Assembly (NCBI GenBank): GCA_046760705.1
Contig: JBHIER010000203.1
Coordinates: 1 to 6,356, forward strand
From: JBHIER01 sp046760705 [NCBI: bacterium]
GTDB taxonomy: Bacteria; JBHIER01; G020348925
DNA length: 6,356 nt
Reading direction: 5' to 3'
In this document: positions 1-6,356 of the stretch, one piece after another
Layout: each line of letters starts with the position of its first letter
Position numbering within the stretch: the stretch's first letter is position 1
Notes under the pieces: generated by a model
What the model saw: the letters and a program-made list of their open reading frames with translations, nothing else
Told to the model about the DNA's origin: nothing
The model's database searches: none
Made by a program: the position numbers and the translations under genes

Positions 1-7
1 GCAGTCT

Positions 8-40
8 ATCGCTCCCCGGAGGCAAGGCAATTCAAGGAGG
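8..40 (+). promoter_or_regulatory. Conserved leader box with SD (copy 1, left arm outside window)
   Basis: ATCGCTCCCC at 8-17 followed by GGAGGCAAGG is the same 20-base block, with one difference, as 719-738 in front of the gene at 752. In that second copy ATCGCTCCCC is the right arm of a perfect hairpin; here the left arm would lie before base 1. The block runs into a strong SD (AAGGAGGTGG, about 35-44) for the ATG at 49. I read it as a shared 5'-leader element of this gene family; whether it is regulatory is inference. Confidence 0.5.
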
Positions 41-1620: not shown

Positions 1621-2205
1621 ATGAAAGGATCACGACCATTAACGCTGGAGGAGATTCAGGAGATCTCCCAAAGCTTCTTTGGCAAGTATGAGGTAAGAGA
1701 TCGGTGTCTGTTTACCATAGGGATCAACACCGGTGCCAGGATCTCAGAGCTTGTCAACCTGAACGTCGGCGATGTCTGGCAGCACGGCCGGCCTGTTGAT
1801 CTTCTGGCATTGAGGAAGTCTACAACAAAGGGCAAAAAGGCCCGGGTTATACCTCTAAACGATGCTGCAAAGGAAGCTGTGGAAGAGCTGGTGGAATGGA
1901 AGAGAACTCAGGAGGAGTTCCTGGATCCGGGAGCTGCCCTTTTCGTGTCCAGGAAGGGGGGAAGGCTCACAAGGCAGCAAACCCATAACATCCTGAAGGG
2001 AGCCTTTGAGGGCAACGAGCTTCAGGGGAAGGTCACGACCCACAGCCTGAGAAAGACCGTCGCGACAACCCTTCACTCCAGGGGCATACCTTTGGGAGTG
2101 ATCCAGGAGGTCCTGGGGCATGAGTCGGTCGCCACCACCCGAAAATATATCGCTGTGAGTCTCTCAGAGCTTACAGAAGCGATGGGGAGACTTGCTTATG
2201 GGTAA
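1621..2205 (+). CDS. Tyrosine recombinase, catalytic domain only (194 aa)
   Basis: This is a phage-integrase-family tyrosine recombinase, which cuts and rejoins DNA through a covalent 3'-phosphotyrosine. All catalytic positions are visible: R40 (NTGARISEL), the beta-hairpin lysine around K70-K73 (TKGKKARVIPL), H141 and R144 (HSLRKT), H167 (LGHES) and nucleophile Y176 (TTRKYI). The ATG at 1621 is chosen because AGGAGG at 1606-1611 is ideally spaced; an in-frame TTG at 1585 lies in the inverted repeat and has no SD. The usual 80-100 residue N-terminal SAM-like core-binding domain of XerC/XerD-type enzymes is absent, so the protein is about two thirds of normal length yet has a proper start. It may be a genuine short form, may need a partner, or may have lost its N-terminus. 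A nested inverted repeat lies upstream and a terminator downstream. Confidence 0.9.
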   Translation: MKGSRPLTLEEIQEISQSFFGKYEVRDRCLFTIGINTGARISELVNLNVGDVWQHGRPVDLLALRKSTTKGKKARVIPLNDAAKEAVEELVEWKRTQEEFLDPGAALFVSRKGGRLTRQQTHNILKGAFEGNELQGKVTTHSLRKTVATTLHSRGIPLGVIQEVLGHESVATTRKYIAVSLSELTEAMGRLAYG

Positions 2206-2358: not shown

Positions 2359-3003
2359 CTACCAAACAGAGGGTTTGTAGATTTTCCGCCCATCGGCCAA
2401 TACTACGGGATCGGGAAACTGATGCTGGAGATATTTCCGGGGATTGATATTGAAGGATATGTCAGCCAGCTTGGCCAGTTCTTTATTTTTCCGTTTGTAG
2501 GGAAATGCAAAGCAGATGCCTTTGGAGGGAAACAGCTTCTTGGCGGTCCTTACAGCCGGTGCGAGGTCAGTATCTCCGGTAACTAAAACGACTGTATCAC
2601 ACTCATCGGTTATGAATATCTCGAATAACTTCGCGGAGATCGCCACATCGGTTTCCTTTTCTTCGTGTCGCTTTAGTGTAACCCAGCAGGTATCGCTACG
2701 ATACCTAATTGTGACTTCCTTGAATTGGGCAAGCTCAACGATGACCCCCGTAGACTCTAAGGCCTCTATGAGGGTCTTGTGTCGCTTCACCTTGTCCGGA
2801 TCGGACGCAATGAGATGCTTGGCGAGAGCAGAAAAGTAGTATGCGCTTTGGGTCTGCGCGTTGTTACCTATCACATGCAGGTAGGAGTCGCACAAAGAGC
2901 GGATGTTGAGCCATTTAGTTGTAGTCCCGCCAAGTGCCCTGCTCGCATCCCGAACTGAGTGGTAAAGGTTGAATCCGTCAATTAAGAACGTTGTTCTATT
3001 CAT
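2359..3003 (-). CDS. NYN-domain (PIN-like, LabA/DUF88 type) protein, 214 aa
   Basis: This is a NYN-domain protein, a PIN-like fold whose clustered acidic residues bind a metal; several family members are RNases. Visible motifs are D9 and N12 in FLIDGFNLYH, E117/D119 in KETDVAISAKL, and D144/D146 in LVTGDTDLAPAV, so the active site looks complete. A basic C-terminal part (FPYKRKNKEL, then NPRKY) could contact nucleic acid. The ATG at 3003 is chosen because translation from the upstream GTG (3054) would run through two hairpins, and FLIDGFNLYH normally lies at the very N-terminus. There is no good SD; a terminator hairpin ends 7 bases before the ATG. The gene stands alone between its own promoter and a terminator. 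The substrate is unknown; RNA cleavage is inferred from the family. Confidence 0.88.
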   Translation of the reverse strand: MNRTTFLIDGFNLYHSVRDASRALGGTTTKWLNIRSLCDSYLHVIGNNAQTQSAYYFSALAKHLIASDPDKVKRHKTLIEALESTGVIVELAQFKEVTIRYRSDTCWVTLKRHEEKETDVAISAKLFEIFITDECDTVVLVTGDTDLAPAVRTAKKLFPSKGICFAFPYKRKNKELAKLADISFNINPRKYLQHQFPDPVVLADGRKIYKPSVW

Positions 3004-3010
3004 AGTAAAT

Positions 3011-3039
3011 AAAAACCCTACGGATCGCAACCCGTAGGG
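3011..3039 (-). terminator. Attenuator-like terminator just before NYN start codon
   Basis: On the minus strand CCCTACGG, an 8-base loop and CCGTAGGG form a perfect 8-bp stem, followed at once by TTTTTATTTACT and the ATG at 3003. By form this is an intrinsic terminator inside the 5' leader, between promoter and gene, so some or all transcripts should stop before the coding region. Read-through or an alternative fold would be needed for expression. Confidence 0.75.
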
Positions 3040-3041
3040 GG

Positions 3042-3069
3042 CCGGGAGAACCACAAAGGTTCTTCCCGG
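3042..3069 (-). promoter_or_regulatory. Leader hairpin upstream of NYN attenuator
   Basis: On the minus strand CCGGGAAGAACC (3069-3058) pairs with GGTTCTCCCGG (3052-3042), with a 5-base loop and one bulged base. It is a stable GC stem without a T-run and lies 2 bases before the terminator stem. It may sense a ligand or protein, be the target of NYN cleavage, or protect the short terminated RNA. All of these are inference. Confidence 0.65.
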
Positions 3070-4588: not shown

Positions 4589-5167
4589 TCAAAACATCTC
4601 TCCTATGAGCTTCTCATAATTCTCCTGCACCTCTTCCAAGTCCTCCGTTCCGTATTCATCCAAAGTGGTCTTGATTGAAGTGTGACCCAGGATCTTGGAG
4701 AGAGTCTCCAAAGATCCACCCTGTCTTTTCCACTCCCGGGCAAAGCTATGTCTGAAGAGATGACAGGTGATGTTCTTGTATTTGGGGTTGGGGTTCTGGA
4801 TTCCTGATTTCTCTCCTGCTTTGGCCAGGATGTGATTGATATGCCTTAAAGAAAGTCTCTCTCCCCTGGGATTGGCAAATAAAGCTCCATTCTTTTTCGG
4901 GCCGATTAAGTATCTAAGATCACTCAAAAGCTCCTCCGACACAGGAATAGTTCTTGACTTCCCACCCTTGCCTTCCCTTATGTAAATGAGCTTTCGCTCA
5001 AAGTCAATGTCCCTGACATCAAGATTAGCGGCCTCAAACCTTCTCATAGCTGTATGAGCTAAGGTCTTCAAAAGGCACCTATCCCTGAAGTTTAAGGCGG
5101 AGTTGATGATCTTTTTTATCTCCTGCCTTTTCAGGTGGTATTCCGAGTCTTTGAGTTGCTGTTTCAT
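4589..5167 (-). CDS. Tyrosine recombinase, catalytic domain only (192-196 aa)
   Basis: A second phage-integrase-family recombinase. Counting from the in-frame GTG at 5179, the catalytic residues are R46 (HTAMRRFEAANL, in place of the common TGLR), K71 or K74 (GKGGKSRTIPV), H140 and R143 (HLFRHSF), H166 (LGHTS) and Y176 (DEYGT). The start is either ATG 5167, with GGGAAAGG very close, or GTG 5179; I list the ATG. As in the plus-strand enzyme, the N-terminal core-binding domain is missing. Overall similarity to that enzyme outside the motifs is low, so they are not recent copies. A strong promoter lies 50 bases upstream and the 117-aa gene follows after 15 bases. The recombination target is unknown. 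Confidence 0.88.
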   Translation of the reverse strand: MKQQLKDSEYHLKRQEIKKIINSALNFRDRCLLKTLAHTAMRRFEAANLDVRDIDFERKLIYIREGKGGKSRTIPVSEELLSDLRYLIGPKKNGALFANPRGERLSLRHINHILAKAGEKSGIQNPNPKYKNITCHLFRHSFAREWKRQGGSLETLSKILGHTSIKTTLDEYGTEDLEEVQENYEKLIGEMF

Positions 5168-5216
5168 TGCCTTTCCCACTTGATTTTATCTGTGAAGAAG
5201 ATTTCCCATTGGGAGG

Positions 5217-5279: not shown

Positions 5280-5404
5280 TAAAGTCATTCAACCTACTCT
5301 CAGCAAAAAAACAAATTGAGGCCACAGTTCCTCTGCAGAATGCCTCTAAAATCCACATAGAGATCCCAGGAAGGCTTTGACTTGGAGAAAACCTTCTTTT
5401 TAGA

Positions 5405-5437
5405 AAAAAGCCCTTAGAGCAATTCTAAGGGCTTTTT
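5405..5437 (-). terminator. Terminator of the secreted-protein gene (bidirectional form)
   Basis: AAAAAGCCCTTAG (5405-5417) and CTAAGGGCTTTTT (5425-5437) form a perfect 13-bp stem with a 7-base loop. On the minus strand it gives a GC stem followed by TTTTTTCT, 24 bases after the stop at 5461. It would also work in the plus direction. Confidence 0.85.
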
Positions 5438-5451
5438 ATGAGAAAGGGCTA

Positions 5452-5495
5452 TGGGTCGGCTCACCTAAGCAGGCTCTTGATCTGCCCCCAAGTGG
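5452..5495 (-). repeat. Tail module DNA repeat, copy A
   Basis: Encodes the last residues (TWGQIKSLLR), the stop codon and about 11 bases beyond it. Aligned with copy B (5859-5903), 42 of 45 columns agree, with one gap and two substitutions. Identity covers the 3' flank, so it is more than protein-level similarity. Confidence 0.85.
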
Positions 5496-5817
5496 TAGGG
5501 GTAGCCGATCCCTTTCCAGACGAGACAAGCTTCGCCAACTTAATAACAAACTCATCTTGTGTGGAGACGTCGATATCCACCTCGGCCTTGGTGTCTCCGA
5601 CATCCAGATCGACGTCTGGGAAGTTGGAAGCGGCTTCCGGGGGGGCATCGGGGTTGACATCGACTGTCACATCCGTCACATCGTTCCTATATACAGTGAC
5701 ATCAGCGACGTTGGATTCCTCTTCTGACTGAGATTCACCAACTGCACTAACCTGAGCAGCAGAGCCGACAAGGGCAAGCGCTAAGAGGCCAGCGAGAAAA
5801 ACCTTGATCGCCTTCAT
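5461..5817 (-). CDS. Small secreted acidic protein with TWGQIKSLLR tail (118 aa)
   Basis: I do not recognise the family. Residues 1-25 form a clear Sec signal peptide (K2/K5, hydrophobic 7-18, cleavage likely after VSA at 25). The mature part is short, very acidic and rich in Asp-Val alternation (DVTVYRNDVTDVTVDV, then DVDLDVGDTKAEVDIDV), which suggests a beta-rich or calcium-binding surface protein. A Gly/Ser/Thr linker leads to the terminal TTWGQIKSLLR (108-118), shared with the protease fragment next door. The ATG at 5817 has GAGGAGGG ideally spaced. It starts 51 bases after the protease stop and has no clear promoter of its own, so it probably belonged to the protease operon. A strong terminator follows. 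A role as partner, inhibitor or co-secreted substrate of the protease is guesswork. Confidence 0.8.
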   Translation of the reverse strand: MKAIKVFLAGLLALALVGSAAQVSAVGESQSEEESNVADVTVYRNDVTDVTVDVNPDAPPEAASNFPDVDLDVGDTKAEVDIDVSTQDEFVIKLAKLVSSGKGSATPTTWGQIKSLLR

Positions 5818-5858
5818 CTTTTTCCCTCCTCATAAATTATGTTTTAGTTGGGAAGGCT

Positions 5859-5903
5859 TGGGTCAGGCTCACTTAAGCAGGCTCTTGATCTGACCCCAAG
5901 TGG
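5859..5903 (-). repeat. Tail module DNA repeat, copy B
   Basis: Second copy of the tail module, encoding TWGQIKSLLK, the stop codon (5869-5871) and about 10 bases beyond. The codons for WGQIKSLL differ from copy A at only one synonymous position. Confidence 0.85.
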
Positions 5904-6180
5904 ACGACTTTGTGGACCGAGGGGTCTCCGACGCAACCACCTTCGGGGAGGTCTGTGTCCCGGTCACGCTTTCCTCCGCATCCACTAGGCCGTAGCCGTA
6001 GTAGTCGTCCTTGCCGGCGGGCCCCAGATCATCCGCGGTGTCCTTAAGTATCGTGCGCACTTCTTCTACCAACAGTGCCGAGTTTGCAGCAAGGATCAAC
6101 GCAGCCGTCCCGGCTACGTGGGGTGCCGCCATCGAAGTTCCGGAGAGAGTCTCGTACTCCCCATCCTTGTAAGTAGGGTA
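5869..6180 (-). pseudogene. 3' fragment of a subtilisin-like (S8) serine protease
   Basis: The open stretch of 103 codons starts YPTYKDGEYETLSGTSMAAPHVAG, the hallmark block around the catalytic serine (GTSMAAPH, Ser at residue 16 of the fragment), and continues through the usual last helices to DYYGYGLVDAEES. A Ser/Thr linker then leads to STWGQIKSLLK. The Asp and His of the triad, the propeptide and the signal peptide would lie upstream but are absent: an in-frame TAA (6183-6181) precedes YPT, and the sequence beyond shows no subtilase features. The match to the family begins at about TYKDG, which puts the break near 6170-6180. There is no start codon or SD, so it is a truncated gene, by insertion or rearrangement. 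The secreted-protein gene follows after 51 bases. Confidence 0.85.
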
Positions 6181-6220
6181 TTACCCCGATTGGTGTAATG
6201 ATACACGCTAAGGAGCGGGG

Positions 6221-6355
6221 TCACTTAAGGGACTCTCCCAGCCCCTTGCACTTAACATACTCTATTGCGAGATCCAGGGTTTTCGTAGTAAGCGGACAAA
6301 GCCCGTCGATCTTCTATCACAGGGGATCTGCCTCCCGGACATAGCTGTAAAGAGT
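6221..6355 (-). pseudogene. Decayed reading-frame end, product not recognised
   Basis: One minus-strand frame reads TLYSYVREADPL, then two consecutive stops (TGA TAG, 6319-6314), then KIDGLCPLTTKTLDLAIEYV followed by KCKGLGESLK and a stop at 6223-6221. The second part looks protein-like (amphipathic helix DLAIEYVKCKG), and both halves share a frame. This suggests one decayed gene, or two unrelated stretches. The upstream part lies outside the window. I do not recognise the family; a mobile-element gene that interrupted the protease is a natural guess. Confidence 0.3.
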
Positions 6356-6356
6356 G

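What the first reader, a model, noticed from the sequence alone, without database searches (positions are those of the whole stretch)
5452..5903. Shared C-terminal TWGQIKSLL[KR] tail as a transferable module
Two neighbouring genes of different fold, a subtilase and a small acidic secreted protein, end in the same 11 residues, [ST]TWGQIKSLL[KR]. A Ser/Thr linker precedes each tail and the stop follows immediately. The DNA is 42/45 identical and includes bases beyond the stop, so the module seems to have been copied as DNA. The tail has no hydrophobic span, unlike LPXTG or PEP-CTERM signals. A short amphipathic Trp-Gly-x-Ile-Lys tail on exported proteins could be a recognition tag for secretion, anchoring or proteolytic maturation. 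I have a vague memory of similar endings on exported proteins of uncultured bacteria, so the tail may be a recurrent but uncharacterised signal.
Basis: partly seen in the sequence, partly recalled or inferred. Interest (0 to 1): 0.75.

Follow-up and report, generated by a model that had tools for sequence, protein, structure and literature searches.

The report
Shared C-terminal tag on exported proteins
The short ending TWGQIKSLL[KR] on two neighbouring genes belongs to a recurrent, apparently undescribed ten-residue C-terminal tag found on hundreds of mostly exported bacterial proteins; it probably tells the cell where to send or anchor them, and so far it is seen almost only in bacteria that own the type IX secretion machine.

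Summary
In detail: both window genes end in the same 11 residues, the DNA matches in 42 of 45 columns and the match runs past the stop. It is more than a local duplication. In one Eisenbacteria-type phylum 20 of 20 genomes hold 8-45 tails, reversed control 0; in Bacteroidota 102 of 104 pattern-positive genomes hold one. Controls are near zero.

218 tail proteins form 74 blastp families. Tails favour signal-peptide genes (9 of 10 versus 78 of 281). Without a stop requirement, 10 of 10 motif occurrences in 360 kb abut a stop. The inner lysine is specific (198 K, 3 R). All 104 pattern-positive Bacteroidota genomes have the type IX translocon SprA; 0 of 68 SprA-less ones have the pattern, but 124 SprA genomes lack it. 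Homologous bodies carry this tail or a type-A CTD, even in adjacent genes.

Best reading: a minimal C-terminal sorting tag linked to type IX secretion. No receptor is shown; the window's genome is not held; its subtilase is a remnant.

The parts
5461..5817 (-). Small acidic exported protein, 118 aa; signal peptide, acidic Asp/Val-rich body, short Ser/Gly/Thr/Pro linker, tail
   Evidence: ORF; no Pfam family at E<=0.001; one NCBIfam match far below its cut-off (E 0.068, 12.5 of 274 bits); no relative by tblastn in genome contigs or viral contigs; passes the crude signal-peptide rule
5743..5817 (-). Predicted Sec/SPI signal peptide MKAIKVFLAGLLALALVGSAAQVSA
   Evidence: read from the sequence; crude rule; the cleavage site is inference
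5461..5496 (-). Tail copy 1: TTWGQIKSLLR + stop
5869..6180 (-). 3' remnant of a tail-bearing subtilase (GTSMAAPHVAG motif kept; about three quarters of the protein missing)
   Evidence: Peptidase_S8, scanned on 5872-6132; 51% identity to L154 residues 319-424; match starts at 6180
5869..5904 (-). Tail copy 2: STWGQIKSLLK + stop
5434..5495 (-). Duplicated DNA, copy 1 (tail codons, stop and bases past the stop)
   Evidence: family D1 (79% over 62 nt ungapped); gapped alignment
5842..5903 (-). Duplicated DNA, copy 2
   Evidence: family D1
5396..5446 (.). Inverted repeat with a T-run just past the small gene, terminator-like by eye
   Evidence: pair I1 (23-nt arms, 83% complementary); not tested as a terminator

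Best explanation
The tail is a minimal, sequence-specific C-terminal sorting tag of exported proteins in the FCB group, most likely read by the type IX secretion (T9SS) pathway. COMPUTED HERE: most carriers have a predicted Sec signal peptide; the motif [ST]-W-G-x-[IV]-K-x-[LM]-[FYL]-[RK] sits directly before the stop; it is attached to many different domains; homologous bodies carry either this tag or a T9SS type-A CTD; tag-bearing genomes are, with few exceptions, a subset of genomes with the T9SS translocon. INFERRED: after Sec export the tag stands out on a flexible linker as a short helix with a free carboxylate. A T9SS component, for instance one of the PorV-type shuttles or the translocon, binds the W-G, the lysine and the terminal basic residue and delivers the protein to or across the outer membrane, mainly for small cargo, while large cargo uses the type-A CTD. 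Whether the tag is then cut off or serves as the anchor is unknown. The two window genes would be ordinary carriers whose 3' ends were copied as DNA.
For: Multi-copy: 446 pattern matches in 20 of 20 genomes of the phylum of G030, reversed control 0. Near absence in the phylum of a Reinekea (2 of 200 including the centre) and of a Chloroflexota genome (1 of 121, the centre itself). Position: without requiring a stop, 10 of 10 motif occurrences in six frames of 360 kb of G030 abut a stop. Signal peptides: 9 of 10 tail genes versus 78 of 281 others in the same DNA. 74 blastp families among 218 tail proteins. Lysine specificity: K 198, R 3 in 12 genomes. Conservation also in tail columns that the retrieval pattern left free: S 36/44 and A 36/44 in the FN3 family, K 15/15 and S 15/15 in the second family (D 9/15 at a third free column), against body means of 45% and 51%. 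T9SS link: 104/104 pattern-positive and 0/68 SprA-less Bacteroidota (Fisher 1e-15, not corrected for kinship); in one class 8/8 and 0/70; SprA in 51 and PorV family in 55 (54 over cut-off) of 57 tested genomes. Signal swap: 21 of 218 tail proteins in 9 of 74 families have a homologue with a type-A-like end; 8 of the 10 distinct homologues were scanned and 8 of 8 pass the TIGR04183 cut-off, including adjacent genes in L231 and in L197/L118. choice_anch_J and choice_anch_V domains above cut-off in two tail proteins. Size split: 619-1571 aa with type-A-like ends versus 146-416 aa with tails. Precedent: last 13 residues and motif-E lysines of type-A CTDs needed, last 22 aa of HBP35 enough for GFP (PMC10202324 section 12).
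Against: No physical or genetic link to any T9SS part is shown. The SprA association may be shared ancestry: 64 of the 68 SprA-less Bacteroidota genomes are one class. 124 of 228 SprA-positive Bacteroidota genomes lack the pattern, and 6 of 6 pattern-negative genomes of the Latescibacterota phylum that were tested have SprA. Three tail-bearing MAGs (G003, G004, G028) have no SprA hit, though all have PorV-family hits over the cut-off; incompleteness is assumed, not shown. G036 (Chloroflexota title) has one tail and neither SprA nor PorV; its locus shares a neighbour gene with three FCB-type loci, so contamination is likely but unproven. Neighbours of single-copy genes look housekeeping by eye. 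Many genomes have one tail only, odd for a general cargo tag. No Ig-like CTD is needed, unlike known T9SS signals. Ascertainment: loci were retrieved by a pattern that fixes T/S, W, G, K, most hydrophobics and the stop, so the residue table and the 92%/90% tail identities are inflated; only the free columns are unbiased.
Confidence: 0.5

Rival explanations
1. In-plane membrane anchor: the tail is an amphipathic helix that lies on a membrane face (inner leaflet of the outer membrane or outer leaflet of the inner membrane) and tethers small periplasmic proteins, like the C-terminal helix of E. coli PBP5.
For: AlphaFold2 puts the tail of the FN3 core protein in a separate C-terminal helix (residues 123-134). 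Hydrophobic residues at positions 2, 5, 8 and 9 of TWGxIKxLFR lie on one helical face; mean hydrophobic moment 0.45 versus 0.33 shuffled over 140 distinct tails, mean z 0.82. PBP5 precedent: its C-terminal 18 aa are the membrane-binding amphipathic helix (PMC2909392, passages).
Against: A generic anchor should accept Arg for Lys; Lys:Arg is 198:3. Only about 2.5 turns long. The moment is only modestly above shuffles. It does not by itself explain the restriction to T9SS genomes or the exchange with type-A CTDs. Whether W and G may vary was not tested without bias.
Confidence: 0.22
2. A dedicated receptor or processing enzyme, not part of T9SS, reads the tail; perhaps a lysine-specific reaction joins the invariant lysine to an envelope component. 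T9SS association is then only shared ancestry in the FCB group.
For: Lys not Arg, position at the stop, single-copy carriers in 102 of 104 pattern-positive Bacteroidota genomes. A frequent T-P-V-E stretch 16 to 13 residues from the end (T 67, P 72, V 98, E 80 of 213 tails) could be a processing-site context.
Against: No recurrent envelope-type neighbour was found in single-copy loci. Homologous proteins exchange this tail for a T9SS CTD, which points to T9SS or a parallel surface route.
Confidence: 0.2
3. The single-copy carrier is itself an accessory part of the T9SS or envelope that docks by its tail, and the many carriers in Eisenbacteria-like phyla are later recruits using the same docking site.
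For: One tail per genome in 102 of 104 pattern-positive Bacteroidota genomes, all with SprA.
Against: Core proteins of different phyla have different domains (FN3-like, carboxypeptidase-regulatory-like by eye, a mixed alpha/beta domain), unlike a machine part.
Confidence: 0.06
4. Local duplication only, no function in the tail.
For: The two window copies are near-identical as DNA past the stop.
Against: Hundreds of carriers with divergent codons and different bodies.
Confidence: 0.02

Closest known systems
T9SS type-A C-terminal domain (TIGR04183 / PF18962), and types B and C
   Same: Works at the extreme C-terminus of Sec-exported proteins; needs basic residues near the end; occurs in SprA/PorV genomes; sits on homologous bodies (subtilase, beta-helix, FN3-like).
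   Different: Tail is 10-15 residues and predicted helical, with no Ig-like beta-sandwich. In the tail proteins scanned singly no Pfam or NCBIfam match reached the tail. The short CTDs of Prevotella intermedia are 43-55 residues and three-stranded (PMC11969387, passages).
PEP-CTERM, LPXTG, GlyGly-CTERM, MYXO-CTERM signals (features recalled)
   Same: Short C-terminal module shared by unrelated exported proteins; basic end.
   Different: No hydrophobic transmembrane stretch in the tail.
C-terminal amphipathic in-plane anchors such as PBP5 (DacA)
   Same: Exported protein with a C-terminal amphipathic helix.
   Different: Shorter, directly at the stop, Lys-specific, on dozens of protein families.

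Membership tests
T9SS cargo (general) | Sec signal peptide | tested here: met
   window small protein passes the crude rule; 9 of 10 tail genes versus 78 of 281 others in G030 C18; 187 of 222 tail ORFs with the start limited to the first 60 residues; 210 of 224 with a lax rule that 132 of 281 non-tail genes also pass. The window subtilase remnant has lost its N-terminus.
T9SS cargo (general) | Genome encodes the SprA translocon | tested here: inconclusive
   Met in most relatives: 51 of 57 genomes and 104 of 104 pattern-positive Bacteroidota. Window genome not held.
T9SS cargo (general) | Secretion depends on T9SS genes | not testable with these tools
   needs deletion strains
T9SS type-A CTD (TIGR04183/PF18962) | Ig-like CTD domain with motifs A-E | tested here: not met
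   no TIGR04183/PF18962 match in the two window proteins; neither is among the 25 families listed, of 34 matched, for 74 tail-family representatives in each library; tail predicted helical in one family
PEP-CTERM / LPXTG / GlyGly-CTERM class | hydrophobic transmembrane helix before a basic cluster | tested here: not met
   last-20 residue table of 213 tails shows no hydrophobic run
In-plane amphipathic anchor (PBP5-like) | C-terminal amphipathic helix | tested here: inconclusive
   helix predicted at mean pLDDT about 62-75, mostly below 50 in the second core family; hydrophobic moment modestly above shuffles
In-plane amphipathic anchor (PBP5-like) | tolerates exchange of basic residues (expected, not a formal definition) | tested here: not met
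   Lys 198 versus Arg 3 at the internal position
In-plane amphipathic anchor (PBP5-like) | binds lipid | not testable with these tools
   needs liposome binding

The most novel reading that the evidence does not exclude
An undescribed fourth kind of type IX secretion signal: a ten-residue helical C-terminal tag, T-W-G-x-I-K-x-L-[FY]-[RK], used across the FCB group for small surface proteins in place of the folded CTD, with up to 45 carriers per genome in Eisenbacteria-like bacteria.
Probability: 0.42. Interest if true: 0.85.

Novelty: new variant of a known kind. Interest (0 to 1): 0.73.

Why it matters
C-terminal tags define how bacteria sort proteins to their surface. A ten-residue tag that replaces a folded T9SS domain would be the smallest such signal known to me, would let the surface proteome of many uncultured phyla be read from sequence, and would be a compact handle for asking which part of the T9SS recognises cargo. 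It is directly testable with a reporter fusion; Stygiobacter electus (locus L073) and Melioribacter are among the named carriers (that Melioribacter is in culture is recalled).

Tried and rejected
Direct relatives of the 118-aa window protein: none by tblastn in genome contigs or viral contigs. A strict tail pattern in viral contigs gave 0 and a looser one a single hit, judged chance. A dedicated neighbour gene: single-copy carriers in Ignavibacteria sit near MATE-, Maf-, YtxH- and EF-G-like genes, in Zixibacteria near Rex-, STAS- and kinase-like genes (labels by eye); nothing envelope-specific was seen to recur. PorV copy number does not follow tail number, by inspection. Papers holding tail strings: none. 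Local duplication as the whole story: rejected. Gene content was not profiled genome-wide, so a better-tracking partner may exist.

Dropped rows and caveats. L001 (viral hit) and L097 (stop inside the motif) are not carriers. L004 and L129 were removed from the type-A set because they are themselves tail proteins; one of the remaining 21 (L232 against L081) aligns over the CTD-like domain itself, so 20 is the stricter count. Three pattern hits in Bacteroidota (G040, G533, the second of G548) look like chance by their residues but were kept. The 116 titles were counted by hand: 92 FCB, 20 without a phylum name, 4 others (Reinekea, Deltaproteobacteria, Lentisphaeria, Chloroflexota). One search read 107 of the 116 loci. 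The 198 and 446 are hand sums of counts; the 104/68 split was read by hand (one search lists every SprA-positive genome but only 20 of the 68 negatives; membership follows by elimination). Phylum names of G-handle groups are taken from the title of the locus that led to the centre. A2 holds 44 of the 58-member FN3 family, A3 13 of its 14-member cluster plus L174 and L175.

Full report
What is in the window. On the minus strand, a 118-aa acidic protein (5461-5817) starts with a Sec-like signal peptide and ends TTWGQIKSLLR. Just upstream of it lies the C-terminal quarter of a subtilase (5869-6180) ending STWGQIKSLLK. The two 3' ends align as DNA with 42 of 45 identical columns and go on matching past the stop (local score 79; best of 300 shuffles 26). 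The subtilase is a remnant: a complete tail-bearing relative (L154, from G048, a genome in the phylum drawn around a Latescibacterota title) matches at 51% over 110 aa, only from its residue 319, and the match begins at window position 6180.

The tail recurs. Titles name FCB-group phyla in 92 of the 116, no phylum in 20, others in 4 (hand count). Of 107 loci read, 104 hits end an open frame of at least 55 residues. In the 40 genomes behind 40 of these loci a looser pattern gave 1 to 45 matches each; the reversed control gave 1 match in all. In the phylum of G030, which also contains G006, G008 and G010 (loci titled Candidatus Eisenbacteria), 20 of 20 genomes have 8 to 45 matches, 446 in all, control 0. 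In the phylum of G003 (Latescibacterota title) 33 of 64 have it, control 1. In Bacteroidota 104 of 296 have it, 102 of them once. In the phylum of Reinekea it is found in 2 of 200 including the centre, and in that of the Chloroflexota title in 1 of 121, the centre itself.

What carries it. From 251 distinct tails, 224 are complete frames of at least 90 aa and 210 pass a lax signal-peptide rule, which 132 of 281 ordinary genes also pass. With the start limited to the first 60 residues of the frame, 9 of 10 tail genes against 78 of 281 others in 360 kb of G030 pass (p 1e-4), and 187 of 222 of all collected tails. 218 tail proteins fall into 74 families by blastp; remote kinship between them is not excluded. 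Representatives include Kelch, NHL, subtilase, lamin-tail, phosphoesterase, beta-helix, plastocyanin-like and starch-binding domains. Two match NCBI's choice-of-anchor families J and V above cut-off; from memory, these names mark domains found in front of different anchoring signals. The last 20 residues show a frequent T-P-V-E, then [ST]-W-G-x-[IV]-K-x-[LM]-[FYL]-[RK].

How far the motif is real and not made by the search. The pattern fixes T/S, W, G, K, the hydrophobic positions and the stop. So I dropped the stop: in six frames of the same 360 kb all 10 motif occurrences abut a stop, none is internal; in 20 stretches chosen because most hold a tail, 20 abut a stop and 1 lies two residues before one. 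Of the columns the pattern left free, serine (36 of 44) and alanine (36 of 44) dominate in the FN3-like family and lysine (15 of 15) and the preceding serine (15 of 15) in the Latescibacterota family, while a third free column there is only 9 of 15; body means are 45% and 51%. The overall tail identities of 92% and 90% are inflated by retrieval. At the internal lysine, an arginine version was found 3 times in 12 genomes that hold 198 lysine tails, control 0, so charge alone is not the requirement. AlphaFold2 on 44 FN3-like members gives a signal helix, a beta-sandwich and a separate C-terminal helix made of the tail (pLDDT about 62-75); the best Foldseek matches include Fn3 domains. In the second family the tail helix has pLDDT mostly below 50.

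Link to type IX secretion. Among 57 chosen genomes SprA is found in 51 and PorV-family proteins in 55, 54 over the cut-off. The SprA-less are G003, G004 and G028 (all with PorV-family hits), G036 (Chloroflexota title), and G037 and G038, whose tail hits I judge chance. The 57 include six pattern-negative genomes of the Latescibacterota phylum, and all six have SprA. Two paired searches gave tables. In the class drawn around Thermochlorobacter, all 8 pattern-positive genomes have SprA and none of 70 SprA-less genomes has the pattern; 3 SprA genomes lack it. In Bacteroidota, 104 of 104 and 0 of 68, with 124 SprA genomes lacking the pattern. Kinship is not corrected for, and 64 of the 68 belong to that one class. 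The tail is a subset trait of T9SS bacteria, and shared ancestry remains a possible reason.

Exchange with the T9SS signal. In the same 360 kb of G030, nine frames of 619-1571 aa end in a type-A-like CTD and twelve of 146-416 aa end in the tail (p 1.4e-4); of seven long ones scanned, five pass the TIGR04183 cut-off of 23 bits and two do not (22.6 and 19.3). In the DNA fetched, 21 of 218 tail proteins in 9 of 74 families have a homologue with a type-A-like end. These are 10 distinct homologues; 8 were scanned and all 8 pass the TIGR04183 cut-off. One of the 21 aligns over the CTD-like domain itself. Two pairs are adjacent genes: L231 9-1706 (CTD) with 1801-2385 (tail), and L197 152-1747 (CTD) with L118 913-1530 (tail; both from G029 contig 28). 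The subtilase pair L154 (tail) and L092 (PKD repeats plus CTD) shows it for the window's own protein family.

Mechanism. The slot, the Sec export, the T9SS-bearing hosts and the exchange with CTDs make a T9SS-linked sorting tag the best single reading, at 0.5. There is a precedent for a short readable end: the last 13 residues and motif-E lysines of type-A CTDs are needed and the last 22 aa of HBP35 suffice for GFP (review PMC10202324, section 12 read). The same review knows types A, B and C (section 11 and passages). The short CTDs of Prevotella are 43-55 aa (PMC11969387, passages). The main rival is an in-plane helix anchor as in PBP5 (PMC2909392, passages), weakened by lysine specificity. 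A dedicated non-T9SS reader remains open; neighbours gave no candidate.

Novelty. In the tail proteins scanned singly no Pfam or NCBIfam match reached the tail; for 74 representatives only 25 of 34 matching families were shown in each library, without coordinates. Full-text searches for twelve literal or shorthand strings of the tail found no paper in the held library. Broader searches (listings of 11 of 11, 17 of 17, 20 of 49, 15 of 225 and 3 of 3 papers) listed none whose title or abstract start describes such a tail. Most subscription papers and all bioRxiv preprints were not searchable.

Noticed in passing
window 6181-6356: DNA upstream of the subtilase remnant shows no subtilase match; one minus-strand frame reads ...KIDGLCPLTTKTLDLAIEYVKCKGLGESLK*, possibly the end of an inserted or rearranged gene.
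   Followed up: partly
window 1621-2202 (+) and 4592-5179 (-): Two short tyrosine recombinases (194 and 196 aa scanned, Phage_integrase E 2.8e-34 and 1.5e-33) in convergent orientation; suggests a mobile or rearranging region beside the tail genes.
   Followed up: partly
window 4-27 and 715-738: 24-nt direct repeats (92% identical) 711 nt apart, with an inverted partner at 693-711.
   Followed up: no
window 2359-3054 (-): NYN-domain protein (E 1.4e-10).
   Followed up: no
L181 (G030 C18, about 87.6-89.7 kb) and L272 (G006 C140): Three and four tail-bearing genes close together, suggesting local growth of tail genes.
   Followed up: no
L076 (Chloroflexota bin26 chromosome, G036): A tail protein with a neighbour shared with FCB-type loci, in a genome titled Chloroflexota with no SprA or PorV hit: perhaps a chimeric assembly.
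   Followed up: partly
G030 C18, about 335,600-338,100: Three neighbouring exported-looking proteins end in weak look-alikes (TWGVLRGDYRG, SVGRLKAEFLE, SFGRIKTQSLE); perhaps decayed tails.
   Followed up: no
L310 (G006 C36): One motif copy, SWGIIKAMYR, lies two residues before its stop instead of at it.
   Followed up: no
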